Below are positions 5,553 to 31,982 of a DNA stretch of 41,273 bases, in pieces. How positions within the stretch are numbered: position 1 is the stretch's first letter; each line of letters begins with the position of its first letter. Below the pieces are notes generated by a model. It worked only from the letters and a program-made list of their open reading frames with translations. It was not told the origin of the DNA and did not search any database. Both the position numbers and the translations under genes were made by a program. Location: the NCBI GenBank assembly GCA_012516175.1, contig JAAYWZ010000069.1, positions 1 to 41,273 of the forward strand, in the 5' to 3' direction. Source of the DNA: Bacilli bacterium. GTDB taxonomy: Bacteria; Bacillota_I; Bacilli_A; Haloplasmatales; Haloplasmataceae.

Positions 5553-6907
5553 ATGTTAAGAAAATATATCGCTCCCAAAATTTTCTATAAAGAACTATTC
5601 ATTATCATTATCCCAATTATTATTCAATTCTTTGTGCAAAATTTTATCAACTTTCTTGATAATATCATGGTAGGTCAATTAGGGGAAGGAGAAATCGCTG
5701 GAGTTGCAGTTGCCAATCAATATTATAAATCTTTTATCCCATTTTAGTATCAATTTGTCAAGGTGCCGCGATTTTTACCGCCCAATATTATGGTCAAGGT
5801 AATTATCAGGAAGTACAAAAAATCTTTTCCATTAAACTTATTTTTCCGAGTTTAGCTACCTTATTCTTTTTCTTTGTTGGAGTATTATTTCCCCAAAGAA
5901 TTATTGGATTCTTTGTCGATGCAAATCTTGATGCCTATAAACATGGTGTAAAATATCTAAAAATCGTCATATGGAGTTATCTACCATTAAGTATTAGTAG
6001 TGCCTTTGCCTTCACTTTACGTCCACTTAAACTTACGCATATCCCTATGATTGCGGTTATAGTGGGAATGAGCACAAATGCGCTCCTTAACTTCTTATTA
6101 ATTTATGGTTTTTGGATTTTTCCTGCCTTAGGAGTTGAAGGAGCAGCCATAGCGACGGTCATTGCGCGTATCATGGAGTTAATTGTCTACATAGTATTAT
6201 TTTTTAAGAATGATTATCCTTTTAAGACGAAAATTGCTAATTACTTTAAAATAGATTTAGATTTAGTCAGAAAGACTTTTGTGAAGGTTGTACCATTATT
6301 CTTTAATGAAGTTTTATTCACTTCAGCATTAACCATTATCTTTAAAACCTACAGCAACTTAGGGCAAAAGGAAATCGCCGTTATTAATATTGCTGATGTG
6401 ATAAGTCAGATTGTCTATATACTCGCTAGTGGCTTAGGTACAGCAGCTAATATCTTTGTTGGTATCCATTTAGGTAATAATGAACTTAAAGAAGCCGAAG
6501 ATAACGCTAATTACTTGTTAGGCTATTCAGTAGGGATGGGAATCATCATAACCTTTATCTTAAGCATCATTTCCTTCATCGTTCCACACTTCTACAATAT
6601 CCAACCCCAAACTAAGGTATTAACAACATATGCAATTCTTATCCACGCCTTTATGGCTCCAGTAACGATGTTAACAAGGATACCCTTCTTTGTGTTACGG
6701 AGTGGGGGGAGGGTATATGAAGTTTTACTTTTAGATGCCATTTTCATGTGGATAGTGAAAGTACCTGTTGCCATAATCTGTGGTTATGTTCTTCATTTCC
6801 CCATCTTACCACTCTTTTTGGCGGTAGAAGCGACCAGGATCTTAAATGCGACTATTAGTATGGCATTATATAAAAAGAAAAGATGGCTAACTAACCTCAC
6901 ATCTTAG
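5553..6907 (+). pseudogene. MATE-family multidrug exporter, disrupted by a one-base frameshift
   Basis: MATE proteins export cationic drugs using a Na+ or H+ gradient. The first frame gives residues 1-64, including the N-terminal I-D/D-N-I-M-V-G-Q-L-G block of the first MATE helices, and then hits TAG at 5745-5747. The next frame (open from 5744 to 6907) continues the homology without a gap, with L-V-S-I-C-Q-G-A-A and A-Q-Y-Y-G-Q-G-N. Adding one T to the TTTT run at 5742-5745 restores one reading frame of 451 codons, the usual MATE length with 12 spans. A later in-frame ATG (6047) would miss the first third of the protein. The 3' end overlaps the stop codon of the convergent ABC permease. Either a recent pseudogene, a phase-variable tract, or a homopolymer error. 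Confidence 0.85.
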
Positions 6908-9558: not shown

Positions 9559-10324
9559 TTATTCGTATTGTAATTGAATTTTATAAACTGCTCGATCATT
9601 ATATTCGGTTAGTGTATATAAATTATCAGTATAACCATTAATAATATCTTTACGATCAAGGATTTTAACTTTTCTTTGTGGCTCACTAAAGTAACTAACT
9701 GTATAATCGTAGGAGATAATACAATAAGCCATATCTTGATGAAGGGTTATTTCATTAAGCAAGTTGTCTAAGTTAAGAGTATTATAAGCAAGTTTATTAA
9801 AATCTTGGTCAAATTGAATTATCTCATAACTGATTAATTTTGGCATATAACTAAAATTCACTTTAAAGACAATCTTTTCATTAACCTGATTAAAATTAAG
9901 ACTGTAACCTAAGGATTGAGTACCTTTTACGTCATAATTGGCACATGTAGGTGTAGTTTGATCTAATTCTTTTATTTCCCCAGTTTTCTCTAATTAATGA
10001 AGTGATATAGTAACATTTATATTTGGGAGTTAAATGATAGTAGATATCATGTTCGGTAATATTAACTCCATCTTTATCACGATATTTATTTACTTTTATC
10101 TCATAAATAAATGAACTTAGTTCACCATCAAGATAGTAATAATCAACAATGGTGTTATCGATAAGAGAATGATTGTATAAGGTTATTTTTACACCTACAT
10201 AATTCGTTAGAGGTCTTATTATACTTCTTTCTTTTGTTGTTATTTCTGATGTTAATACTAATTTACAGCTTGAAAGTAGAAACATAAGTGTTAAGGATAT
10301 AATCGCTAAATATACTCTTTTCAC
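9559..10324 (-). pseudogene. Lipoprotein copy B', frameshifted
   Basis: This is a paralogue of the 252-residue lipoprotein at 11787-11029. It starts with GTG at 10324, overlapping the stop of copy A' as GTGA. The signal peptide ends at S-S-C (lipobox). The frame follows copy B up to L-I-R-E-N, then diverges and stops at 9932. The homologous continuation (N-G-E-I-K-E-L-D, P-T-C, then V-N-F-S-Y-M-P and so on to 9559) lies in the next frame. Alignment with copy B places one extra base at about 9983, so the lesion is a single insertion. The conserved Cys pair (Y-K-C and P-T-C) is still readable across the break. Real decay or a base-call error cannot be told apart here. Confidence 0.85.
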
Positions 10325-10968
10325 GCTGTTTTCCCCTCAGTTTCTGTTGTAAACTTTAGTGTTATTATCTGGCGTTCATTATTTTGATTGAGACTGATAG
10401 TGGAGTAATTGTACATTTTGTTAGCTTTACTTACGATTTTACTGCGATTAATAAGTTCACGTACATAATAAGGTTCGCCGTTTGCGTCAATGTATTTCAT
10501 ATTTAAGAGTAAATTTGAGGTATCCTTTGAGATGTTTATTGGAATATCATTACTAGTTACATCTATCATGTAATTATCGATTTTGCTATACTCAGCATCA
10601 AATTCAACTACCTCAATGCTTTCAAGATAATCAATATCTACAAATTTCAACATAATATAATATGTAAAGTTTTTGGCTATGTATGTTATTTCTTTTTTAT
10701 CATCGCAAATGGTTTCGGGTGTACCTTCTACTATCTCATCTTTGTCATTATAGAAAACAAAACTATAAGTGACGCATTGATACTTATCTAAGTCAAAATA
10801 ATAATCACCTGTTATCGTTTCACTTTCATTAAAAACAACATGGGAATGGATATTCTTTATATAAATACTTCTAGTTAATGTTACATCTTTATTAATACCT
10901 AAATCGTAATTTATGATGTAATAATCATAATTATAATCATCTAATTTCAGCTTTACTGCATATGGTAG
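10321..10968 (-). pseudogene. Lipoprotein copy A', 5' end lost at an IS end
   Basis: Reading the minus strand from 10968, an open frame matches lipoprotein A (12548-11784) from its L-P-Y-A-V-K-L-K-L-D segment to the C-terminus (compare K-P-Y-A-I-K-L-K-L-D in A). It keeps Y-Q-C-V and T-I-C-D-D, the conserved cysteine pair. The signal peptide and lipobox are missing: homology stops exactly where a 33-base IS end (10969-11001) begins, and that IS end contributes an in-frame TGA. The first ATG (10653) would leave only the C-terminal 110 residues, unexported. It is therefore a truncated gene. Its 3' end overlaps copy B', the same arrangement as in the intact A-B pair. Confidence 0.85.
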
Positions 10969-11001
10969 TTTAGTACTGTCTACTTTAAGGGGATCATATC
11001 A
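10969..11001 (-). mobile_element. Solo 33-base IS3-family end
   Basis: Identical to the outermost 33 bases (109-141) of the IS at the left of the window, in the same orientation. The IS body should lie at coordinates below 10969, but lipoprotein A' sequence starts there instead. The rest of the element and the 5' part of A' have been lost, leaving a scar. Confidence 0.8.
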
Positions 11002-11028
11002 GAATATAATCTTCTTTTGTTTATGTTT

Positions 11029-11787
11029 TTAACTATTTGTTGGTTCAACTTTGAACTGAATAATGTAAAATGCTCGTTCATCATTCTCAGTTAGAGTATA
11101 AAAACGTTCAGTATAGCCATTAATGATATCTTTGTGATCAATTATTTTAACATCACTTTGACTAACCTCACCCTCTAAATACTGATATATGATTTTACAG
11201 TAGGCAGTGTCTTGTTGGATGATATATTCATCAGAGATATTATCTAAGGTAATTGTCTTAGAAACAAGTTTATTGTGACTTTGGTCATATTCAATTACCT
11301 CATAGCTTATAAAGTTGGGCATAAAACTAAAGTTAACCTTAAAAATTATCTTTTCATTTACTTTGCTATCTTTATAACCATAGCCTATGGAATGGGAGAA
11401 TTTAGCCATAAAATCCGTACATGTTGCAGTACTGCTATCTAACTCTTTAAGATCACCATTTTCTCTAATCAATGTAGTGATATAGAAACAGTTATACTTG
11501 GGAGTTAAATGATAGTTTATTTCATGTTCTATTACTTGAGCACCACTATCATCTTGATATTCTTTAACACTGACATCATAAATATAGAGACCTTTTTCAC
11601 CATCAATGTAGTAATAGTCAACAAGTGGATCATTAATGAAATTATCAAGTATACTGATTTTTACACCAACATATTCGATCGTTTTGTTTTCTGTCGTTGT
11701 TTTTTCTGTAGTAGAGGAAACTAGTTCACAACTTGAGATAAAGAACAAAGTAACAAATACAATTAATACTAAATATACCCTTTTCAT
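11029..11787 (-). CDS. Lipoprotein B, unknown family
   Basis: This 252-residue lipoprotein has a basic N-terminus, a hydrophobic segment and lipobox I-S-S-C (Cys20), followed by a Ser/Thr/Glu linker. The mature part looks all-beta, with a conserved pair of cysteines: Y-N-C (near 100) and A-T-C-T-D (near 120). V-N-F-S-F-M-P-N-F-I-S-Y-E-V-I-E-Y-D is shared in pattern with lipoprotein A, so A and B are themselves distant paralogues. It overlaps the stop of A by ATGA. The next copies (A', B') are degraded, so A and B are the functional pair. No known domain is recognised. It is probably anchored outside the membrane and made under control of the XRE regulator upstream. Confidence 0.75.
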   Translation of the reverse strand: MKRVYLVLIVFVTLFFISSCELVSSTTEKTTTENKTIEYVGVKISILDNFINDPLVDYYYIDGEKGLYIYDVSVKEYQDDSGAQVIEHEINYHLTPKYNCFYITTLIRENGDLKELDSSTATCTDFMAKFSHSIGYGYKDSKVNEKIIFKVNFSFMPNFISYEVIEYDQSHNKLVSKTITLDNISDEYIIQQDTAYCKIIYQYLEGEVSQSDVKIIDHKDIINGYTERFYTLTENDERAFYIIQFKVEPTNS

Positions 11788-12548
11788 ACTGCTAACCCCT
11801 CATTCTGTACTGAGAATCTTAATACAATGGATTGTCGGACATTTTCTTGATTCAAACCAATAACGGGATAATAGGAGTACTTATTATTTAATCCCTCAAT
11901 CTCGGTGCGATTTACTAGTTTACGCACATAGTAAGCTTCGCCGTTCTTGTCAATGTATTTTTTATTGATTAGAAAATCCTTGGCATCTTTGGAGATAAAG
12001 ACAGATATTTCAGGATTATTTAAATCGATGCGCTGGATTTTAAGTTTGTTGTCATGTTTATCAAACTCAACAATTTCAATACTTTCTAGTATGTCGACAT
12101 CTACAAAATTCATCGTAAACGAGTGACTATAATTATTGGACGTGTAAGATATGTGGGCTTGATCTTCGCAAAACATTTCCGGATTATGCTCTTCAATTTC
12201 ATCATTTTCGTTAATGAATAAGTAACTTAAAATCACGCATTGATAACGATCCATATCGAAATGATAATTACCTGTGATAATTTCTTTATCATTACCAATT
12301 AGATGGATATGAACATTACTATAAAAATGACTAGTAGTAAACTTTTTATCTTCATCGTCCCCTCGATAATAAGAAGTTACATAATAATCTATTGTATTCT
12401 CATCTAACTTGAGTTTTATGGCATATGGCTTTCGAATTATATCTTGATTGGTACTAGTTTCAGTTGTTTTATCAATATATACTAATTGACACCCTAAAAG
12501 TATCAAGATGGTAAATGAGAATATCAAGTATTTAATTAATTTAGTCAT
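11784..12548 (-). CDS. Lipoprotein A, unknown family
   Basis: This 254-residue lipoprotein starts at the ATG at 12548 (M-T-K-L-I-K), preceded by GGAGAGG and overlapping the stop of the XRE gene by 8 bases. Upstream in-frame Met codons lie inside the XRE gene and would spoil the signal peptide. The lipobox is L-L-G-C. The mature part has the same skeleton as B: Y-Q-C-V, then M-F-C-E-D, then M-N-F-V-D-V-D-I-L-E-S-I-E-I-V-E-F-D. The cysteine pair is conserved in all four copies and may form a disulfide. It is translationally coupled on both sides (XRE-A-B). Function unknown. Confidence 0.75.
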   Translation of the reverse strand: MTKLIKYLIFSFTILILLGCQLVYIDKTTETSTNQDIIRKPYAIKLKLDENTIDYYVTSYYRGDDEDKKFTTSHFYSNVHIHLIGNDKEIITGNYHFDMDRYQCVILSYLFINENDEIEEHNPEMFCEDQAHISYTSNNYSHSFTMNFVDVDILESIEIVEFDKHDNKLKIQRIDLNNPEISVFISKDAKDFLINKKYIDKNGEAYYVRKLVNRTEIEGLNNKYSYYPVIGLNQENVRQSIVLRFSVQNEGLAV

Positions 12549-12774
12549 CGTTATCCTCTCCATCATTATCATCATCAATAAATTTTATAATATCACCTGG
12601 TTCACATTTGAGGACTTTACACAACTTATTTAAAGTGGAAAATCGAATCGCTCTTGCTTTATTACTACGAAGGATAGAAAGATTCGCTTCGGTAATGCCG
12701 ATAATATCCGCTAATTCTTTTGAGGTGAGATTATTTTTCTTAATAATCTCATCCAAATTGACATAAATACTCAT
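12541..12774 (-). CDS. Small XRE-family regulator (YozG-like)
   Basis: The helix-turn-helix protein has 77 residues. L-D-E-I-I-K-K-N-N-L-T-S-K-E-L-A forms helices 1-2, I-T-E-A-N-L-S-I-L-R-S the recognition helix, and R-F-S-T-L-N-K-L-C-K-V-L-K-C-E-P-G-D-I the typical end. This is the short Cro/CI type usually encoded next to DUF2975 membrane proteins. Here it follows the DUF2975-like gene by one base. The end is odd: an 11-residue acidic tail made almost only of Asp, Asn, Gly and Glu. It probably binds the inverted repeats at the operon promoter; this is inferred from position. Confidence 0.9.
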   Translation of the reverse strand: MSIYVNLDEIIKKNNLTSKELADIIGITEANLSILRSNKARAIRFSTLNKLCKVLKCEPGDIIKFIDDDNDGEDNDD

Positions 12775-21088: not shown

Positions 21089-22320
21089 GTGTTAGATATT
21101 ATCAAATGGTTTCTTTATGCCTTTACATTTAGCTTGTTTATATTTGGACTTATGACTGATAGTTTGATAAATATATTAAATGGTTTAAAATCAATCATGA
21201 TATCTCGCAATATCCTCATAACCGATTACTTCCTCGTAGGGGGGATTGGGGCAAGTTTTATTAATGCGGCACTTCTTACCTTTATTTGTCTATTCTTAAT
21301 CCAAATTACGAAAACGAAGATTACGGGAAGTGGGATTGCTGCCATTTTCTCTGTTTCTGGTTTTGCGCTTTTTGGGAAGAATCTTGTTAATGTGTGGTTT
21401 ATGTTTCTCGGAGTAATAATCTATACATTAATTAAACGTGAGAAAATTAGTGACCATCTGTATAGTGCTTTTTTTGGGATGGCGATGGCCCCACTTACAA
21501 GCGAGTTTATCTTTTCAAAATGGTTACCGTTAGAAACAGGCATAATTTTAAGTATAGTTGTCGGGATATTCACTGGTTTAATCATCGTTCCGTTATCACG
21601 TTATTTCTACCGTTTTCATCAAGGGTATTGTTTATATAATACAGGGTTAACTGCAGGATTAATAACGACAATTATCATCAGTATTATGCGATCGGATATA
21701 GTTTAACACCCCATTTATTAGTTTCTAATGGTGATAACCTCCTTATCGGGAGTTTTCTCCTTATCTTATTTGTCTTAATGATTATAGTGGGAATAGTAAC
21801 AGATAATACTGCCTTACGTAATTATCCCCAACTATTTAAGGAAACAGGTAAATTAATGTCAGATTATTTATCTAAGTATGGATTTAGTATCACGATGATT
21901 AATATGGGATTTACGGGGCTGCTTTCCTTAGGATATGTGTTACTTGTTGGTGGTAAGTTAAATGGTCCTGTAACTGGAGCTATTCTAGTTGTTATTGGAT
22001 TTAGTGCCATGGGTAAGCATCCAAAGAATGTTTTCCCAATACTTCTTGGTGTGGGGATCGGTGCAGTAACTAAAATTTGGAACATCAATGATACATCCAT
22101 CATATTAGCAGCGCTTTTTGGGACCTCTTTAGCACCACTTGCGGGTGAGTTTGGTTTTTTTGTGGGGCTTGTGGCTAGTTATATTCATCTATCTGTTACA
22201 GTAAATGTGGTTAGTTTGCATGGTGGATTGAATTTATATAATAATGGTTTTGCGTCAGGATTAGTAGTAGCATTCCTCTATCCAATTATTAGAACATTTT
22301 CACGTAGATTAAATAAATAA
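21089..22320 (+). pseudogene. DUF1576 family membrane protein, disrupted by a frameshift
   Basis: The first frame encodes 205 residues with about six spans and ends with TAA at 21704-21706. The homology resumes in another frame (G-Y-S-L-T-P-H-L-L-V-S-N-G-D-N-L-L-I-G), open from about 21694 to 22320. The two halves resemble one another: each has a G-F-A/G-F-S, L/M-G-K, N-V, P-L-A/T-G-E-F, H-x-G-x-x-L-Y-N-x-G pattern, as expected for a protein with an internal duplication. Restoring one base near 21690-21694 gives a single frame of 411 codons. The first ATG of the second half (21778) has no ribosome binding site. Lesion or sequencing error; role unknown. Confidence 0.75.
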
Positions 22321-25103: not shown

Positions 25104-26123
25104 ATGAGTAAATTATTTTCATCAATCACTATTAAGGATTTAACATTAAAGAATCGCTTTGTGATGGCACCAATGTGCATGTATAGCACTAAAGGTGATG
25201 GCCACTTAACACCCTTCCATTTTCTCCACTATAATACAAGAGCCGTTGGTGGCGTAGGACTAATCATTGTGGAAGCAACTGCAGTAGAACCGCGTGGTAG
25301 AATTACTCACAACGATTTAGGTATTTGGGACGATGCCTTTATTGACGGCTTCAAACAGCTAACTAGTGAAGTAAAGAGTAATGGTGCTAAAATTGGGATT
25401 CAGCTTGCTCATGCGGGAAGAAAAGCTGATTTACCTGGTGAAGAAATAATCGCAGCTAGTCCTATCCGCTTTAATGATCATTATCAAGTACCTAAAGAGA
25501 TGACGAAGGAAGATATTCATACAGTTATCAAGTGTTTTAAGGATGCGGCTTTACGTGCCAAGTTAGCTGATTTTGATATAATTGAAATTCATGCTGCTCA
25601 TGGGTACTTAATTAATCAGTTCCTCTCCCCCTTGACTAATAAACGTACAGATGAGTATGGTGGTAGTATTGAAAATCGTGCTCGAATTCTTGTCGAAATA
25701 GTTAAGGCAGTGCGTGAAGTGTGGTCTAAAGAAAAACCTTTAATGGTAAGAGTATCAGCAATGGACTTTAAAGAAGGTGGTAACACTGTTAATGATATTA
25801 TCGAAATCATTAAATTAATTAAGGATGATGTTGATATCATCGATTGTAGTACAGGTGGTGTCGTTAGTGATGCGAAAATTAATGCTTATCCTGGCTATCA
25901 AGTAAAATATGCTGAAGAAATAAAAAAAGCTACTGGACTTCTCACAGTAGCGGGTGGTTTAGTCACCACACCAGAGATGGCTAGTGAAATCATTGATAAT
26001 GAAAGAAGCGATATGTTGTTCTTAGGTCGGGTATTATTAAGAGAACCATATTTTGTTTTAAATGCAGCTAAAAAGCTTAATGTTGATTATTCTTGGCCAT
26101 TCCAATATGTTCGGGGTAAATAA
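25104..26123 (+). CDS. namA: NADPH dehydrogenase NamA (YqjM), Old Yellow Enzyme family
   Basis: This FMN-dependent enoate reductase has 339 residues, the length of B. subtilis YqjM. The N-terminal M-A-P-M-C-M-Y-S carries the Cys (C25) and Tyr (Y27) that define the YqjM class, and I-E-I-H-A-A-H-G-Y-L carries the two substrate-binding His. R-T-D-E-Y-G-G-S-I-E-N-R-A-R is the usual OYE block, and the C-terminal W-P-x-Q-Y motif is also typical. It acts on electrophilic alkenes and nitro compounds, giving a detoxification role next to the MFS exporter. GGAGG fixes the start. Confidence 0.95.
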   Translation: MSKLFSSITIKDLTLKNRFVMAPMCMYSTKGDGHLTPFHFLHYNTRAVGGVGLIIVEATAVEPRGRITHNDLGIWDDAFIDGFKQLTSEVKSNGAKIGIQLAHAGRKADLPGEEIIAASPIRFNDHYQVPKEMTKEDIHTVIKCFKDAALRAKLADFDIIEIHAAHGYLINQFLSPLTNKRTDEYGGSIENRARILVEIVKAVREVWSKEKPLMVRVSAMDFKEGGNTVNDIIEIIKLIKDDVDIIDCSTGGVVSDAKINAYPGYQVKYAEEIKKATGLLTVAGGLVTTPEMASEIIDNERSDMLFLGRVLLREPYFVLNAAKKLNVDYSWPFQYVRGK

Positions 26124-26143: not shown

Positions 26144-26171
26144 TTGACAAATTGATTATCTTTTATATAAT
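26144..26171 (+). promoter_or_regulatory. Promoter of the RsgA-like gene
   Basis: -35 TTGACA (26144-26149), 16-base spacer, -10 TATAAT (26166-26171): close to consensus, so the gene is probably well expressed. Confidence 0.75.
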
Positions 26172-26210
26172 TTAGTTAAATGATAGTTTTCAAAATTTTT
26201 GGAGGAATTA

Positions 26211-27059
26211 ATGAGTCTACAACAATATTTACAAGTATTAGGTGAAAATACTAATTCTGGTAGAGTGGTCGCATTTGATGGAGAAAATTATCACATCATC
26301 ACCCACCAAGGCTTAAACACAGTATCATCGAAACAGTTTACACTCGGCGATATCGTAACAATAACAGATGAACAGTTTAGACTAGCACCCCGCAAGAATC
26401 GTTTCCAATATAAGCAGCTTTCCTTCGCCAATTTTGATTGCGTCTTTTTCCTCCATTCTTTAACTGATGAAATCGATTATCCAGTTTTATATGATTTAAT
26501 CGTTAAAGTGTGGGATTGTGGGGTTACTCCTTATCTAGTTCTATTTAGTAATGGGAATGATCAGAAGAAGGTCTTTGAGATTAAGAGTGCTCTTCCAGGG
26601 GTAGATTATTATCTCATTGATAATAGGGAAACTGTCAAAGAGAAGTTGAGTAAACATTTACGACCTAATCGGGTAATCTCGGTGATTAGTTTCGCTAATA
26701 GCTTAACTTATGATTTTCTTGGTCAATTTAGTAGAGAAATCCATTACCAGCAAGAAGTAGTCCCAGTTGAAAATGGCCCCATTTTCTTAATAATTAACAC
26801 AGATATTAATGAGAAAAAGGGTAATTTCGATGAAGACTTCTTAGATATCGACCAGTTGGCTGAGAAATGCCGCTTTAAGGATTGTAAGCACCTAACCGAG
26901 CCGGGTTGTAAGGTTCGCGAAGGGGTAGAACGTGGGTTTATTAGTCGCGAGCATTATGAAAATTATCTTCGACAACATAATCTCTTAACTTTTGATGAAG
27001 AAGAAAGTTTTGAGCGGAATAATAAAAAGTATAAACATAAAGATCGCAATCTCTATTAA
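26211..27059 (+). CDS. RsgA-like protein without GTPase motifs (pseudo-GTPase)
   Basis: The protein has 282 residues. The domain order matches RsgA/YjeQ, the circularly permuted GTPase that helps mature the 30S subunit: an OB-fold-like N-terminus (G-R-V-V ... G-D-I-V-T, 1-60), a central domain and a C-terminal zinc knuckle C220-x4-C225-x-H227-x5-C233 within F-K-D-C-K-H-L-x-E-P-G-C. Where RsgA has G4 (NKxDL), G1 (P-loop GxSGVGKSS) and G3 (DTPG), this protein has V-L-F-S-N-G-N-D (111-117), V-I-S-F-A-N-S-L-T-Y (155-166) and I-I-N-T-D-I-N (194-200). All nucleotide motifs are gone, yet the frame is intact. GGAGG sets the start. Probably a ribosome- or RNA-binding paralogue; a true rsgA should exist elsewhere. 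Confidence 0.8.
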   Translation: MSLQQYLQVLGENTNSGRVVAFDGENYHIITHQGLNTVSSKQFTLGDIVTITDEQFRLAPRKNRFQYKQLSFANFDCVFFLHSLTDEIDYPVLYDLIVKVWDCGVTPYLVLFSNGNDQKKVFEIKSALPGVDYYLIDNRETVKEKLSKHLRPNRVISVISFANSLTYDFLGQFSREIHYQQEVVPVENGPIFLIINTDINEKKGNFDEDFLDIDQLAEKCRFKDCKHLTEPGCKVREGVERGFISREHYENYLRQHNLLTFDEEESFERNNKKYKHKDRNLY

Positions 27060-27080
27060 CTTTGGTTAATAGAGATTTTT
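27048..27080 (+). terminator. Terminator of the RsgA-like gene
   Basis: Thirteen-base-pair stem (27048-27060 with 27065-27077) including the stop codon, then a short T run. Confidence 0.8.
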
Positions 27081-27165: not shown

Positions 27166-28059
27166 ATGGAAAGCGAAGCTCAATTTTTAAAGAACTATGA
27201 TCCAAGTAAATATGAGCGACCCTCTGTCACTGTTGATGTATTGGTGTATACAGTAATGAATGAAGAAATAGATAATTATCGAAAACTACCAAAAAAAGTT
27301 TTGAAGGTGCTGCTTATTAAAAGAAAAAATCACCCGTTTAAAGATTGTTGGGCGATTCCTGGAGGTTTCGTGGAAATAGATGAAAGTTTAGAAGAAGCAG
27401 CTTTAAGGGAATTGAAAGAAGAAACAAATATTGACAACATCTATATTGAACAGTTATATACCTATGGTGATGTAAATCGTGACCCGCGCACCAGAGTGAT
27501 TAGTTGTTGTTACATGTCACTAGTTGATAGTAGCAAATGTAATATTCAGGCTAATGATGATGCGAAAGAGGCTCGATGGTTTACAATCGAGTATAAACTA
27601 ATTGCTGAACAAAAGAATATTAATAATGATGGCTATACTAAGACGAAAACCTATAAACTAACTCTTACTGATAAAGATTTAGTGTTAGAAGCTATCATTA
27701 ATACCATTATTACTTCAAAAGGTCGAAATGTAGCGATGAAACGAGAGATTGTTTCATCAAATAACATCGCATTTGACCATGCCTTAGCGATATCTTATGG
27801 TATTGAACGCTTGCGAAATAAGATTGAGTATACCGATATCGTCTTTAATCTCATGCCTGAGGAATTTACCTTAACAGAACTTCAACAAGTGTATGAAGTC
27901 ATATTAGATACAGAACTTTTAAAAGCAAACTTTAGACGTAAAATCCAAGACATGGTCCAAGAAACTAATAACTATACCCGCGATAAAGGTCATCGACCAT
28001 CAAAATTATATCGGTTTAATCCTCATTGGATTGATTTGCATATTGAAAGGAGAAACTAA
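27166..28059 (+). CDS. Nudix hydrolase with NrtR-like winged-helix domain
   Basis: The protein has 297 residues. The Nudix fold (about 20-160) contains a complete catalytic box: G67-x5-E73-x7-R81-E-L-x-E85-E86. The usual Gly near the end is replaced by Asn (N88). The C-terminal part (about 225-290), with E-F-T-L-T-E-L-Q-Q-V-Y-E-V-I-L and F-R-R-K-I, is the winged-helix domain of the NrtR family, repressors of NAD biosynthesis that sense ADP-ribose derivatives. Because the box is intact, it may both hydrolyse (for example ADP-ribose) and regulate. It heads an operon of NAD salvage genes, as NrtR genes often do. GGAGGAGG precedes the ATG. Confidence 0.85.
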   Translation: MESEAQFLKNYDPSKYERPSVTVDVLVYTVMNEEIDNYRKLPKKVLKVLLIKRKNHPFKDCWAIPGGFVEIDESLEEAALRELKEETNIDNIYIEQLYTYGDVNRDPRTRVISCCYMSLVDSSKCNIQANDDAKEARWFTIEYKLIAEQKNINNDGYTKTKTYKLTLTDKDLVLEAIINTIITSKGRNVAMKREIVSSNNIAFDHALAISYGIERLRNKIEYTDIVFNLMPEEFTLTELQQVYEVILDTELLKANFRRKIQDMVQETNNYTRDKGHRPSKLYRFNPHWIDLHIERRN

Positions 28060-28061
28060 AT

Positions 28062-28724
28062 ATGGATAAGGAGAAGTTTTTAAAGGCTAGTGGTGTGATT
28101 CTAGAGACGCTCTATGATGAGTTTACAAGTCTACCAATTCTTAACTTCACCGAGTTAGATAAGGATAAAACAGCACTAATCATCGTTGATATGATCAATG
28201 GTTTCGTTAAAGAAGGTGCCTTAAGTAGTCCGCAAATGGCTAGTTTAACACCAGAAATCGTGAAATTGACGAAAAAATTTAAAAATGAAAAACTAAAAAT
28301 TGTGGCTTTGGCGGATAATCATCCTGAAGATTCAGTGGAATTCTGTGCTTATCCACCTCACTGCATTAAAGGTACAAGTGAAAGTTTCGTTATTGATGAA
28401 CTTCAAGAAGTAGGTGGATATGAACTCATTGAAAAGAATTCTACGAATGGCTTCTTAGAACCAACATTTCAAGACTGGCTAAGTAGTCACCCTGAAATTG
28501 ATACTTTTATTATTACAGGTGGTTGTACGGATATATGTGTGCTTCAATTAGCTTTAACACTTAAGATGCACTTCAACCGCTTAAATAAAAAAACTAGAAT
28601 AATTGTACCTACTAATGGAGTAAACACTTATGATTTAGGTACACATTTTTCCTCTTTAATGCATCTTTTTGCGCTCTATAATATGCGCTTAAATGATATA
28701 GAAATCGTAAAAGAAGTAAAATAA
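28062..28724 (+). CDS. pncA: Nicotinamidase (isochorismatase-like hydrolase)
   Basis: This enzyme converts nicotinamide to nicotinate in NAD salvage. It has 220 residues. The catalytic triad of the family is visible: Asp in I-I-V-D-M-I-N-G-F, Lys in E-K-N-S-T-N-G-F, and Cys in G-G-C-T-D-I-C-V-L-Q. The metal-site residues are in A-D-N-H-P and P-P-H-C-I-K-G-T. The ATG is 2 bases after the Nudix stop, and the next gene encodes the enzyme that uses its product, so the assignment to nicotinamide is well supported by context. Confidence 0.9.
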   Translation: MDKEKFLKASGVILETLYDEFTSLPILNFTELDKDKTALIIVDMINGFVKEGALSSPQMASLTPEIVKLTKKFKNEKLKIVALADNHPEDSVEFCAYPPHCIKGTSESFVIDELQEVGGYELIEKNSTNGFLEPTFQDWLSSHPEIDTFIITGGCTDICVLQLALTLKMHFNRLNKKTRIIVPTNGVNTYDLGTHFSSLMHLFALYNMRLNDIEIVKEVK

Positions 28725-28741
28725 ATATAGCGAGGTAGAAA

Positions 28742-30187
28742 ATGGACATTAAACGTAATCTAACATTATTGACCGATTTTTATGAAATTACCATGGGTAA
28801 CTCTTTCTTCACTAATGGCAAGAAGGATGTTATTGGCTATTTTGATCTCTTCTTTCGGGATAATCCTGATAATGGCGGATATGCCATTATGGCAGGTGTT
28901 CAACAAGTAATAGAATATTTAGAGAACTTAAAATTTGATGATGAAGATATTGAATATTTACGTAAGAAAAACATGTTCAATGAAGAATTCTTAGAATATC
29001 TACGTAACTTCAAATTTAGTTGTTCTGTCTGGGCAGTAGAAGAAGGCACACCAATCTTTCCCTATGAGCCCATTCTAGTCGTCAAGGGACCGATGATTCA
29101 AGCACAATTAATTGAGACAATGTTACTTGTCACCATTAATCATCAAAGTCTGATTGCGACGAAAGCTAGTCGGATTGTGCAAGCTAGCCAAGGTAGAGCG
29201 GTGATGGAGTTTGGCGCTCGTAGAGCCCAAGGATATGATGCGGCTATCTATGGTGCTCGTGCTGCTTTTATCGCTGGTTGTGTTGGTACCTCTTGTACTA
29301 TCGCAGATGAATTATTTGATATACCTGCATTAGGTACCATGGGGCATAGCTTTATTCAATTATTTGATTCGGAACTAGAGGCATTTAGAGCTTATGCACG
29401 AACTTATCCAGATAAGTGTGTATTATTAGTAGATACCTATAATGTCTTAAAATCTGGTGTACCTAATGCGATTAAAGTGTTTAAGGAAGAAGTTGTACAG
29501 CGAGGATATCGACCTGTAGGAATTAGAATAGATAGCGGTGATATCGCCTACTTATCAGCAGAAGCTCGCAAAATGCTTGATGAAGCAGGATTTCCAGATT
29601 GTAAAATTGTGGCTTCAAACTCTTTAGATGAATACATTATTCGGGACCTAATTAGCCAAGGTGCCCAAATTGATCAATTTGGGGTTGGGGAAAGATTAAT
29701 TACTGCCAAGTCTTCACCCGTCTTTGGGGGGGTATATAAATTGGCAGCTATTGAAGAAAATGGTACAATTGTGCCGAAGATAAAAATTAGTGAAAATATT
29801 GCGAAAATTACTAACCCAGGTTTTAAACAAGTCTATCGGTTCTATGATGAATCTACTAATAAAGCTTTGGCTGATGTGATTGCGTTACATGATGAGGTAA
29901 TTCCCGAAAATGGACCCTACGAGATTTTTGATCCCATAAGTCCATGGAAACGCAAGACCTTGACTAACTACAAGTTGCGTAAACTACTTGTCCCAATATT
30001 TATCGATGGTAAATGTGTTTATAAATCACCAACCTTAAAAGAGTTACAAGCTCGTTGTAAGTTTGAACTAAGTACATTATGGGATTCAGTGTTACGCTTT
30101 GAAAATCCCCATCAATACTACGTAGATTTATCAAAACCACTGTGGGATTTAAAGAATGAAATGATTTATACACATTCATTAAAATAA
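28742..30187 (+). CDS. pncB: Nicotinate phosphoribosyltransferase
   Basis: This enzyme makes nicotinate mononucleotide from nicotinate and PRPP. It has 481 residues, of the longer Gram-positive type. Typical blocks are L-T-D-F-Y-E-I-T-M near the start, F-G-A-R-R-A-Q-G-Y-D-A-A-I-Y-G-A-R-A-A, G-T-M-G-H-S-F-I, D-T-Y-N, and R-I-D-S-G-D-I with A-S-N-S-L-D-E toward the phosphate-binding C-terminal half. It lies 17 bases after pncA with GAGGT before the ATG. With pncA it completes the two-step salvage of nicotinamide. Confidence 0.95.
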   Translation: MDIKRNLTLLTDFYEITMGNSFFTNGKKDVIGYFDLFFRDNPDNGGYAIMAGVQQVIEYLENLKFDDEDIEYLRKKNMFNEEFLEYLRNFKFSCSVWAVEEGTPIFPYEPILVVKGPMIQAQLIETMLLVTINHQSLIATKASRIVQASQGRAVMEFGARRAQGYDAAIYGARAAFIAGCVGTSCTIADELFDIPALGTMGHSFIQLFDSELEAFRAYARTYPDKCVLLVDTYNVLKSGVPNAIKVFKEEVVQRGYRPVGIRIDSGDIAYLSAEARKMLDEAGFPDCKIVASNSLDEYIIRDLISQGAQIDQFGVGERLITAKSSPVFGGVYKLAAIEENGTIVPKIKISENIAKITNPGFKQVYRFYDESTNKALADVIALHDEVIPENGPYEIFDPISPWKRKTLTNYKLRKLLVPIFIDGKCVYKSPTLKELQARCKFELSTLWDSVLRFENPHQYYVDLSKPLWDLKNEMIYTHSLK

Positions 30188-30202
30188 AAAGGTGAAAAAA
30201 GC

Positions 30203-31459
30203 ATGCGAATTAAAGTCCCTCACTTTTCTTTAGTAATCCTAATCGGACCTAATAGTAGCGGGAAATCAACTTTTGCGGAAAGACACTTTCAAAACAGTGA
30301 AATTGTGTCTTTAGACTATTGTCGCTACTTAATAAGTGATGCACCTAAGGAGACCCTTGCAACCGCAAAAGCATATGAGTTAATGAACGAAATTATCGAT
30401 AAAAGACTTAGTATGAAGAAACTAACTGTGGTTGATGCTCCTAATGTCCTTAAACATCAACGTTTAGAACTACTTAATCTCGCTAATCTGCATCATGCCC
30501 TTACTGTCGCCATTGTATTGAATTTACCAAAAGAGGTAATAATAGCGAATAATCGTAGTAATGATTTTCCCATTGATGATAACATTATTAATTATCAGTT
30601 GCATCAATTAGAATTAAGTTTACCAAATCTAAAACAAGAGGGCTTTAATTCTGTCTATATCATTAATTCAGTAGAGGAGCTTATGAAAACGGAAATAACA
30701 CAAGCACCATTGTTCTGTGATAAACAAACAGAATCAGGACCTTTCGATATTATTGGAGATATTCATGGTTGTTTTGATGAACTAGTGCTATTACTTAAAA
30801 AATTAGGATATGTGATTGAAGATTACCATGTAACTCATCCTGAGGGAAGGAAAGTCGTTTTTGTCGGTGATTTAGTTGACCGAGGACCAAAAAGTGTTGA
30901 AGTACTAAAACTCGTGATGGGTATGGTTAAAGATGGTCTAGCTTTTTGTGTTCAAGGTAATCATGATAATAAACTATATCGGATGCTTTCGGGGCATAAT
31001 GTGATAGTAAATCATGGTCTTGAACTTACCCGCCAAGAACTAGACCAAGCTACGGAAACTTTTCGTAATGATGTAAAGGAATTCTTAAAAGATTTACCAA
31101 CACATGTAATCCTTGATTATGGTAAATTAGTGGTTGCTCATGCTGGTATTAAGGAAGAATATATTGGTAGACATTCTAAAGAAATCAAAGCCTTTACATT
31201 ATATGGTGATACCACAAAAGAATTAGATGAATGGGGATTACCTGAACGGCGCTTATGGTCGAATGATTATAAAGGCAATGCCTTAATCATTTATGGGCAT
31301 ACACCAAATCTTGAACCAGTTATGATTAATAACACTATAAATATTGACACAGGATGTGTCTTCGGTAATAAACTAACAGCTTATCGTTATCCTGAAGGCG
31401 AATTTGTTTTCGTTGAAGCCTTACAAAAATACGCTAGTTATCCAAGACCATTACGTTAG
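30203..31459 (+). CDS. Pnkp-like polynucleotide kinase/phosphatase lacking the ligase domain
   Basis: The protein has 418 residues and two domains. The kinase domain (1-160) has P-loop G15-P-N-S-S-G-K21-S22, D38 and R41 at the numbers known for Clostridium thermocellum Pnkp, and V-V-D-A-P-N-V. The phosphatase domain (about 180-400) is of the calcineurin type: G-D-I-H-G (185-189), G-D-L-V-D-R-G-P, G-N-H-D, A-H-A-G and Y-G-H-T-P. Clostridial Pnkp continues with a roughly 400-residue ligase domain and pairs with Hen1 in RNA repair; both are absent here. It sits inside the NAD salvage operon, 15 bases after pncB. It could heal RNA ends for a separate ligase or act on another phosphoester. The chemistry is supported, the substrate is not. 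Confidence 0.85.
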   Translation: MRIKVPHFSLVILIGPNSSGKSTFAERHFQNSEIVSLDYCRYLISDAPKETLATAKAYELMNEIIDKRLSMKKLTVVDAPNVLKHQRLELLNLANLHHALTVAIVLNLPKEVIIANNRSNDFPIDDNIINYQLHQLELSLPNLKQEGFNSVYIINSVEELMKTEITQAPLFCDKQTESGPFDIIGDIHGCFDELVLLLKKLGYVIEDYHVTHPEGRKVVFVGDLVDRGPKSVEVLKLVMGMVKDGLAFCVQGNHDNKLYRMLSGHNVIVNHGLELTRQELDQATETFRNDVKEFLKDLPTHVILDYGKLVVAHAGIKEEYIGRHSKEIKAFTLYGDTTKELDEWGLPERRLWSNDYKGNALIIYGHTPNLEPVMINNTINIDTGCVFGNKLTAYRYPEGEFVFVEALQKYASYPRPLR

Positions 31460-31472
31460 AGGGAGGAAAATT

Positions 31473-31982
31473 ATGAAAGCCTTGGATGTAATCTATACAA
31501 GGCGGAGTATACGCCGGTTTACTGGTGAAGTAATTAATGAAGAATTATTGACAAAAATATTAAAGGCTGGTTTTCAGGCACCATCTGCCCATAATCGCCA
31601 GCCTTGGGAATTTGTGGTTATTAATGATAAAACTAAGTTAAAGCGAATTATGGAATTTCATCGTTATGCGCAAATGGCTGAATCTAGTGGTTGTGGTATC
31701 TTAGTCTGTGGGGATAGTATTAAGCAACCCACTTTAGGCTTCTTGGTTGAAGATTGTAGCGCAGCCATTCAGAACATCTTACTAGCTATTCATAGTTTGA
31801 ATCTTGGTGGTGTTTGGTGTGGTGTATATCCAAAGGAAGACTTAATGGAAAACTTCTCGAAATTATTAGAACTACCACCTCATATTATTCCTGTGGGTTT
31901 TGTGGTAGTAGGGCATAAAGATGAAGAAAAACCACCAAGAGATAATTTCGATGTAAATAAGATACACTATAATAAATGGTAA
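31473..31982 (+). CDS. Nitroreductase family FMN oxidoreductase
   Basis: The protein has 169 residues. The family start, Y-T-R-R-S-I-R-R-F (FMN phosphate contacts), is followed by A-P-S-A-H-N-R-Q-P-W-E-F and the later A-I-Q-N-I-L-L-A and G-G-V-W-C-G. It is short for the family, like the nitroreductases of Clostridia that reduce quinones or nitro compounds with NAD(P)H. The ATG at 31473 follows GGGAGG. It is the last gene of the NAD operon, 13 bases after the Pnkp-like gene, with a strong terminator behind it. Confidence 0.88.
   Translation: MKALDVIYTRRSIRRFTGEVINEELLTKILKAGFQAPSAHNRQPWEFVVINDKTKLKRIMEFHRYAQMAESSGCGILVCGDSIKQPTLGFLVEDCSAAIQNILLAIHSLNLGGVWCGVYPKEDLMENFSKLLELPPHIIPVGFVVVGHKDEEKPPRDNFDVNKIHYNKW

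What the first reader, a model, noticed from the sequence alone, without database searches (positions are those of the whole stretch)
26211..27059. RsgA paralogue that has lost all GTPase motifs but kept OB fold and zinc knuckle
The protein keeps the RsgA length, order and C-x4-C-x-H-x5-C knuckle. G4, G1 and G3 are replaced by V-L-F-S-N-G-N-D, V-I-S-F-A-N-S-L-T-Y and I-I-N-T-D-I-N. The frame is intact and the promoter is near consensus, so it is unlikely to be a decaying gene. A pseudo-GTPase could bind the 30S subunit without GTP control, as a competitor, hibernation factor or assembly brake.
Basis: partly seen in the sequence, partly recalled or inferred. Interest (0 to 1): 0.7.

Follow-up and report, generated by a model that had tools for sequence, protein, structure and literature searches.

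The report
RsgA relative stripped of its GTPase
A bacterium of the Haloplasma family carries, besides its normal ribosome-assembly GTPase RsgA, an intact and probably expressed second copy whose whole GTP-binding machinery has worn away while its two ribosome-contacting domains remain, so it may grip the ribosome without any GTP switch.

Summary
Window 26211-27059 (+) encodes a 282-aa RsgA-type protein with an exact C-x4-C-x-H-x5-C zinc knuckle and none of G1-G5. It has a 12/12 consensus promoter and a terminator. The genome keeps a normal rsgA in its usual place (rlmN-rsgA-rpe-thiN). The protein is not a worn copy of that rsgA. It is the positional counterpart of a longer paralogue, RsgA2, which lies before the NrtR-pncA-pncB cluster in Haloplasmataceae. 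There the gene is intact in two genomes, half-worn in one (G1 and G4 kept; switch I and DTPG lost), motif-less in the window and absent in another. Erosion is concentrated in the G body (21% identity to intact copies, against 50% among intact copies); the OB (26 vs 34%) and zinc (40 vs 51%) domains stay near baseline. The reading frame is far too diverged to be unselected, and promoter and leader match those of the half-worn copy. Most likely it is a selectively kept pseudo-GTPase that binds 30S subunits, or another RNA, without nucleotide or (p)ppGpp control. The 30S binding is inferred, not shown; the basic OB loop, switch I and basic tail are lost too, so binding may be altered. New variant of a known kind.

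The parts
26144..26171 (+). promoter TTGACA-16-TATAAT
   Evidence: 12 of 12 consensus matches; promoter and leader align with those of the G005 half-worn copy, score 23 against control mean -8.2, sd 6.3
26201..26205 (+). Shine-Dalgarno GGAGG
   Evidence: sequence; same TTTGGAGGAATTA leader in G005
26211..27059 (+). pseudo-GTPase RsgA2, 282 aa
   Evidence: intact frame; RsgA fold only; placed in the RsgA2 clade with G005, G007, G002, support 97/92
26211..26426 (+). OB domain (residues 1-72), basic loop before GD deleted
   Evidence: identity to intact RsgA2 0.258 against 0.341 among intact copies; strands in model
26427..26822 (+). degenerate G domain (residues 73-204)
   Evidence: residues 73-200: identity to intact RsgA2 0.208 against 0.499 among intact copies; no Pfam match
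26538..26561 (+). former G4 (T/S-K-x-D), now VLFSNGND
   Evidence: alignments
26682..26711 (+). former G1 P-loop (GSSGVGKS), now VISFA----NSLTY
   Evidence: alignments
26712..26756 (+). former switch I/G2 (RGRHTTTHREL), about 13 residues deleted
   Evidence: alignments; similar deletion in G005
26790..26810 (+). former G3 (DTPG), now IINTDIN
   Evidence: alignments
26823..26984 (+). zinc-binding domain (residues 205-258); knuckle CRFKDCKHLTEPGC at 26868-26909
   Evidence: identity to intact RsgA2 0.403 against 0.511 among intact copies; TIGR00157 match 199-254; PDB hits
26985..27056 (+). C-terminal tail, basic charge lost (net 0; intact copies +3 to +10)
27048..27077 (+). intrinsic terminator, 13-pair stem and T run
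25104..26123 (+). left neighbour: Oxidored_FMN family oxidoreductase
   Evidence: Pfam PF00724; synteny
27166..31982 (+). right neighbours: NrtR-type NUDIX regulator, isochorismatase-fold nicotinamidase-like protein (pncA), nicotinate phosphoribosyltransferase (pncB), AAA/metallophosphatase, nitroreductase-like ORF
   Evidence: Pfam for the first four; the same gene order follows rsgA2 in G005, G002, G007

Best explanation
This is a pseudo-GTPase derived from RsgA2, the second RsgA-type protein of Haloplasmataceae. An RsgA2 with a normal G domain lost switch I and the DTPG loop, leaving no hydrolysis. In the window lineage it then lost the P-loop and G4, leaving no nucleotide pocket. The OB core, a G-domain scaffold and the zinc domain stayed under selection, and the gene has its own strong promoter. 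Shown: identity, placement, graded motif loss among relatives, domain-specific constraint, intact frame, shared promoter and leader with the half-worn relative. Inferred: the order of the losses, and that the protein still uses its OB and zinc domains to hold the small ribosomal subunit or a pre-30S particle (or another structured RNA). With no switch I and no pocket, its binding would not respond to GTP, GDP or (p)ppGpp. It would act as a nucleotide-blind occupant of the RsgA site while the true RsgA does the GTP-driven checkpoint step.
For: All G motifs are lost with the zinc knuckle exact. Fold matches are RsgA only. True rsgA is in its canonical context. Positional orthology with intact RsgA2 in G002 and G007. 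PF03193 falls from 184.7 bits in the intact G002 copy to 89.8 in the half-worn G005 copy to no match in the window. Identity to intact copies divided by the intact-to-intact baseline is 0.42 for the G body, 0.76 for OB and 0.79 for zinc. An unselected frame this diverged would carry stops: 0 of 1000 simulations were stop-free once G-body identity fell to 0.6 or lower. Promoter and leader are conserved with G005 about as well as those of the orthologous NrtR gene. Literature: OB and zinc domains are what 30S binding needs in E. coli YjeQ (PMC4436671). Deleting switch I in S. aureus Era keeps nanomolar 30S binding but makes it indifferent to ppGpp (PMC8579695).
Against: 30S binding is untested. 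Lost as well are the basic OB loop before GD, switch I (a contact to h44 in RsgA, PMC8579695) and the basic charge of the C-terminal tail; the C-terminal helix is needed for RbfA release in YjeQ (PMC4436671). RsgA itself binds 30S 3-6 fold better with GMPPNP than in the apo state (PMC8579695). The gene is missing at this place in G004, so it is dispensable in the family. Only one genome holds the fully motif-less form.
Confidence: 0.5

Rival explanations
1. A dispensable RsgA2 copy on its way to loss: constraint is relaxed, the GTPase went first, and the gene survives by chance until it is broken or deleted, as in G004.
For: Gene absent between the oxidoreductase and NrtR genes in G004 (L089); very long branch, 2.9-3.4 changes per column against 0.14-0.16 for G002/G007; half-worn state in G005; two other window genes are frameshifted.
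Against: No stop or frameshift in 282 codons despite huge divergence; constraint lost in the G body but not in the OB and zinc domains; codon-position composition normal; 12/12 promoter, and the leader conserved with G005 although the proteins are only about 26-31% identical.
Confidence: 0.22
2. Repurposed away from the ribosome: the OB and zinc domains now bind another RNA or protein, or a regulator tied to the neighbouring NAD-salvage cluster.
For: The h44-facing switch I, the basic OB loop and the tail charge are lost; stable position before NrtR-pncA-pncB in four genomes.
Against: The intact GTPase form sits in the same place in G002 and G007, so the position predates the change. The gene has its own promoter and terminator. 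In G003 and G006 an intact RsgA2 lies elsewhere.
Confidence: 0.22
3. Still a GTPase or nucleotide binder using unusual motifs.
For: The Rossmann-like G scaffold is predicted to persist.
Against: No P-loop lysine, no G4 Asn/Thr-Lys-x-Asp, no DxxG, no switch I threonine or catalytic histidine.
Confidence: 0.03
4. On the history rather than the function: the motif loss arose twice, independently in the G000 and G005 lineages, rather than once.
For: rlmN-rsgA-rpe-thiN tree puts G005 with G002/G003/G004/G007 (99/98) and rejects G000+G001+G005 as a clade, p-AU 0.011; the gene tree does not reject G005 with G002/G007, p-AU 0.09.
Against: Gene trees join G000 and G005 (88/46 and 96/88); similar switch I and OB-loop deletions; shared promoter and leader absent from G002/G007. 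Transfer or differential loss of two ancestral copies would reconcile them.
Confidence: 0.35

Closest known systems
RsgA / YjeQ / CpgA (YloQ), circularly permuted ribosome-assembly GTPase, TIGR00157, PF03193
   Same: OB - G body - zinc domain order, exact zinc knuckle, fold matches only RsgA
   Different: No G1-G5, no switch I, basic OB loop and basic tail lost; below the TIGR00157 cut-off and no PF03193 match
RsgA2, the longer second RsgA-type paralogue of Bacilli (354-366 aa in its closest intact kin G002/G007)
   Same: Gene position, tree placement, zinc domain
   Different: Relatives keep all G motifs; this copy is about 75 aa shorter and motif-less
Half-worn RsgA2 of JARDZP010000070.1 (Haloplasmataceae MAG, G005)
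   Same: Same gene cluster, similar deletions in the OB loop and switch I, same promoter and leader
   Different: Still has GSTGEGKST and TKTD; may bind nucleotide but lacks G2/G3 for hydrolysis (inference)
Pseudo-GTPases in eukaryotes, for example septins (PMC10731463)
   Same: Stepwise loss of hydrolysis, then binding, in paralogues that keep a scaffold role
   Different: Unrelated GTPase family, different cell role
S. aureus Era with switch I deleted (laboratory variant, PMC8579695)
   Same: Lacks switch I, so no hydrolysis
   Different: Still binds nucleotide; different GTPase; made in the laboratory

Membership tests
RsgA (active GTPase) | G1 GxxxxGK[S/T] | tested here: not met
   SFA----NSLT in its place
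RsgA (active GTPase) | G4 [N/T/S]KxD | tested here: not met
   FSNG---ND
RsgA (active GTPase) | G3 DTPG and switch I HTT | tested here: not met
   NTDI; switch I deleted
RsgA (active GTPase) | over the TIGR00157 or PF03193 cut-off | tested here: not met
   49.2 bits against 100; no Pfam match
RsgA superfamily (homology) | C-x4-C-x-H-x5-C zinc knuckle with flanking helices | tested here: met
   CRFKDCKHLTEPGC; TIGR00157 residues 199-254, 5e-13
RsgA superfamily (homology) | OB - G - zinc fold | tested here: met
   AF2 pLDDT 73.9, pTM 0.62; all nine PDB matches with E <= 0.001 are RsgA, TM 0.42-0.49, domain angles differ
RsgA2 subfamily | clade placement and gene position | tested here: met
   with G005, G007, G002 at 97/92; before NrtR-pncA-pncB
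30S-binding factor | binds 30S or pre-30S | not testable with these tools
   needs purified protein and subunits
pseudo-GTPase | no nucleotide binding or hydrolysis | not testable with these tools
   all motif residues absent; biochemical test needed
pseudogene | stops, frameshifts, uniform loss of constraint | tested here: not met
   intact frame; constraint kept in OB and zinc domains

The most novel reading that the evidence does not exclude
A natural, stringent-response-blind RsgA: a paralogue that lost its nucleotide switch so that it holds the 30S decoding region whatever the GTP/(p)ppGpp level, setting a pool of subunits aside when the true RsgA is released by ppGpp, and so a new kind of ribosome-silencing or assembly-brake factor.
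Probability: 0.15. Interest if true: 0.8.

Novelty: new variant of a known kind. Interest (0 to 1): 0.5.

Why it matters
It looks like a natural experiment on what the GTPase of RsgA is for. The family shows intact, half-worn, motif-less and deleted states of one gene at one locus. If the motif-less protein still binds 30S, binding and the GTP timer are separable, and a nucleotide-blind form can be useful to a cell. I found no paper in the held library that mentions both RsgA and pseudoGTPase, and no other motif-less form among the top matches in 395 genomes of the class.

Tried and rejected
Decayed copy of the housekeeping rsgA: rejected, since the tree and synteny place it with RsgA2. Absence in the same-genus genome G001: cannot be used, because its assembly breaks inside the oxidoreductase and pncB genes on either side, so no close orthologue was available for dN/dS. 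Viral contigs gave no relative of the protein itself; RsgA2 from viral contigs served only as alignment rows. The genome-contig scan returned only the G005 copy and an ordinary Chloroflexota RsgA with all motifs. The phylum search gave nothing new. rpoB was not usable for the species tree because G005 lacks a match; the NrtR-pncB-phosphatase tree was unresolved. No Rfam match in the window.

Full report
What is there. The ORF at 26211-27059 (+) encodes 282 aa and starts at ATG after GGAGG. Its promoter is a full 12/12 sigma-70 match with a 16-nt spacer, and a 13-pair terminator overlaps and follows the stop. The C-terminal part carries CRFKDCKHLTEPGC, the RsgA knuckle. None of G4, G5, G1, G2 and G3 is present in the permuted order expected of RsgA. 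Pfam gives no match at E up to 1, and NCBIfam RsgA only the last quarter. The AlphaFold2 model (five sequences, pLDDT 73.9, pTM 0.62) has OB strands, an alpha/beta body and the helical end. All nine PDB matches with E <= 0.001 are RsgA. TM is only 0.42-0.49 with rmsd near 16, so domain angles are uncertain.

Is there a true rsgA? Yes. G000:C60 2259-3152 has GQSGVGKS, TKID, GRGKHTTRH and DTPG, between rlmN-type and rpe-type genes, the usual place. The genome is a MAG-like assembly of 207 contigs, 99.4% complete. The family was identified through G005, whose contig matches JARDZP010000070.1, a Haloplasmataceae MAG; the order holds this one family of eight genomes.

Where it comes from. The best relatives are the longer RsgA2 copies, not the housekeeping RsgA. 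A tree of 32 proteins puts the window protein with G005, G007 and G002 RsgA2 (97/92). In G002, G007 and G005 the same order rsgA2 - NrtR - pncA - pncB - AAA/phosphatase is found (G005 has three extra genes after rsgA2). G002 and G007 copies have all motifs. The G005 copy keeps GSTGEGKST and TKTD but lacks about 14 residues of switch I, and DTPG has become DIDE. PF03193 scores are 184.7 bits (G002), 89.8 bits ending before switch I (G005) and none (window). In G004 the oxidoreductase and NrtR genes are adjacent with about 110 bases between, so the gene is gone. In G001, the same genus, the assembly breaks exactly there. G003 and G006 have intact RsgA2 elsewhere.

Kept or decaying? Identity to nine intact RsgA2 against the average among the intact ones: OB 0.258 vs 0.341, G body 0.208 vs 0.499, zinc 0.403 vs 0.511. 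Loss is concentrated in the G body. Neutral simulation, which ignores indels and so is generous to decay, gave no stop-free frame in 1000 runs once G-body identity fell to 0.6 or below. Codon-position G+C is normal. The 72 bases upstream align with those of the G005 copy at score 23. Control pairs average -8.2 (sd 6.3), and 4 of 1664 reach 23, some of them possibly true orthologue pairs, which were not removed. G002 and G007 upstreams do not align. Promoter and leader are therefore shared by the two worn copies and kept while the proteins drifted to about 30% identity.

One loss or two? The gene trees join G000 and G005 (88/46; 96/88), but grouping G005 with G002/G007 is not rejected (p 0.09). 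A four-gene tree of the rsgA neighbourhood puts G005 with G002-G004-G007 (99/98) and rejects G000+G001+G005 (p 0.011). Shared deletions and leader favour one origin with transfer or differential loss; independent loss remains possible. This is unresolved.

How it may work. In E. coli YjeQ the OB and zinc parts carry 30S binding, and the C-terminal helix is needed for RbfA release and for stimulation of GTPase (PMC4436671). In S. aureus, RsgA binds 30S best with GMPPNP, and switch I contacts h44. Era lacking switch I binds nucleotide, cannot hydrolyse, and binds 30S at 7-10 nM whether with GMPPNP or ppGpp (PMC8579695). By analogy the G005 form may bind nucleotide without hydrolysis, and the window form neither. 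Both could sit on 30S regardless of GTP or ppGpp. Against this, the basic OB loop and the basic tail charge (net 0 here, +3 to +10 in intact copies) are also lost, so affinity or site may have changed. The mechanism is inference; identity, origin and selective retention are the supported part.

Verdict. A real and unusual protein: an RsgA2-derived pseudo-GTPase with a graded series in its family. New variant of a known kind, interest 0.5.

Noticed in passing
window 5555-6907 (+): MATE-type transporter gene is frameshifted near 5690: the N-terminal part is in another frame than the listed ORF 6047-6907. Real or assembly error not decided.
   Followed up: partly
window 21089-22320 (+): DUF1576 gene appears split in two frames (21089-21706 and 21778-22320), a single 338-aa ORF in G003.
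   Followed up: partly
L081 (G002:C8) 31-330: A second RsgA2 zinc-domain fragment lies at a contig edge in G002, separate from its intact RsgA2; truncated by the contig end or a remnant.
   Followed up: partly
L090 7146-9478: In G003 a long ORF that looks like a transposase lies between the SIMPL-like gene and NrtR, where rsgA2 sits in relatives; its RsgA2 is on another contig.
   Followed up: no
window 9559-12578 (-): Run of several related small lipoprotein-like ORFs, some apparently partial.
   Followed up: no
window 30203-31459 (+): AAA_33 kinase plus calcineurin-like phosphatase fusion (PNKP-like) in the NAD-salvage cluster of most family members with the locus.
   Followed up: no
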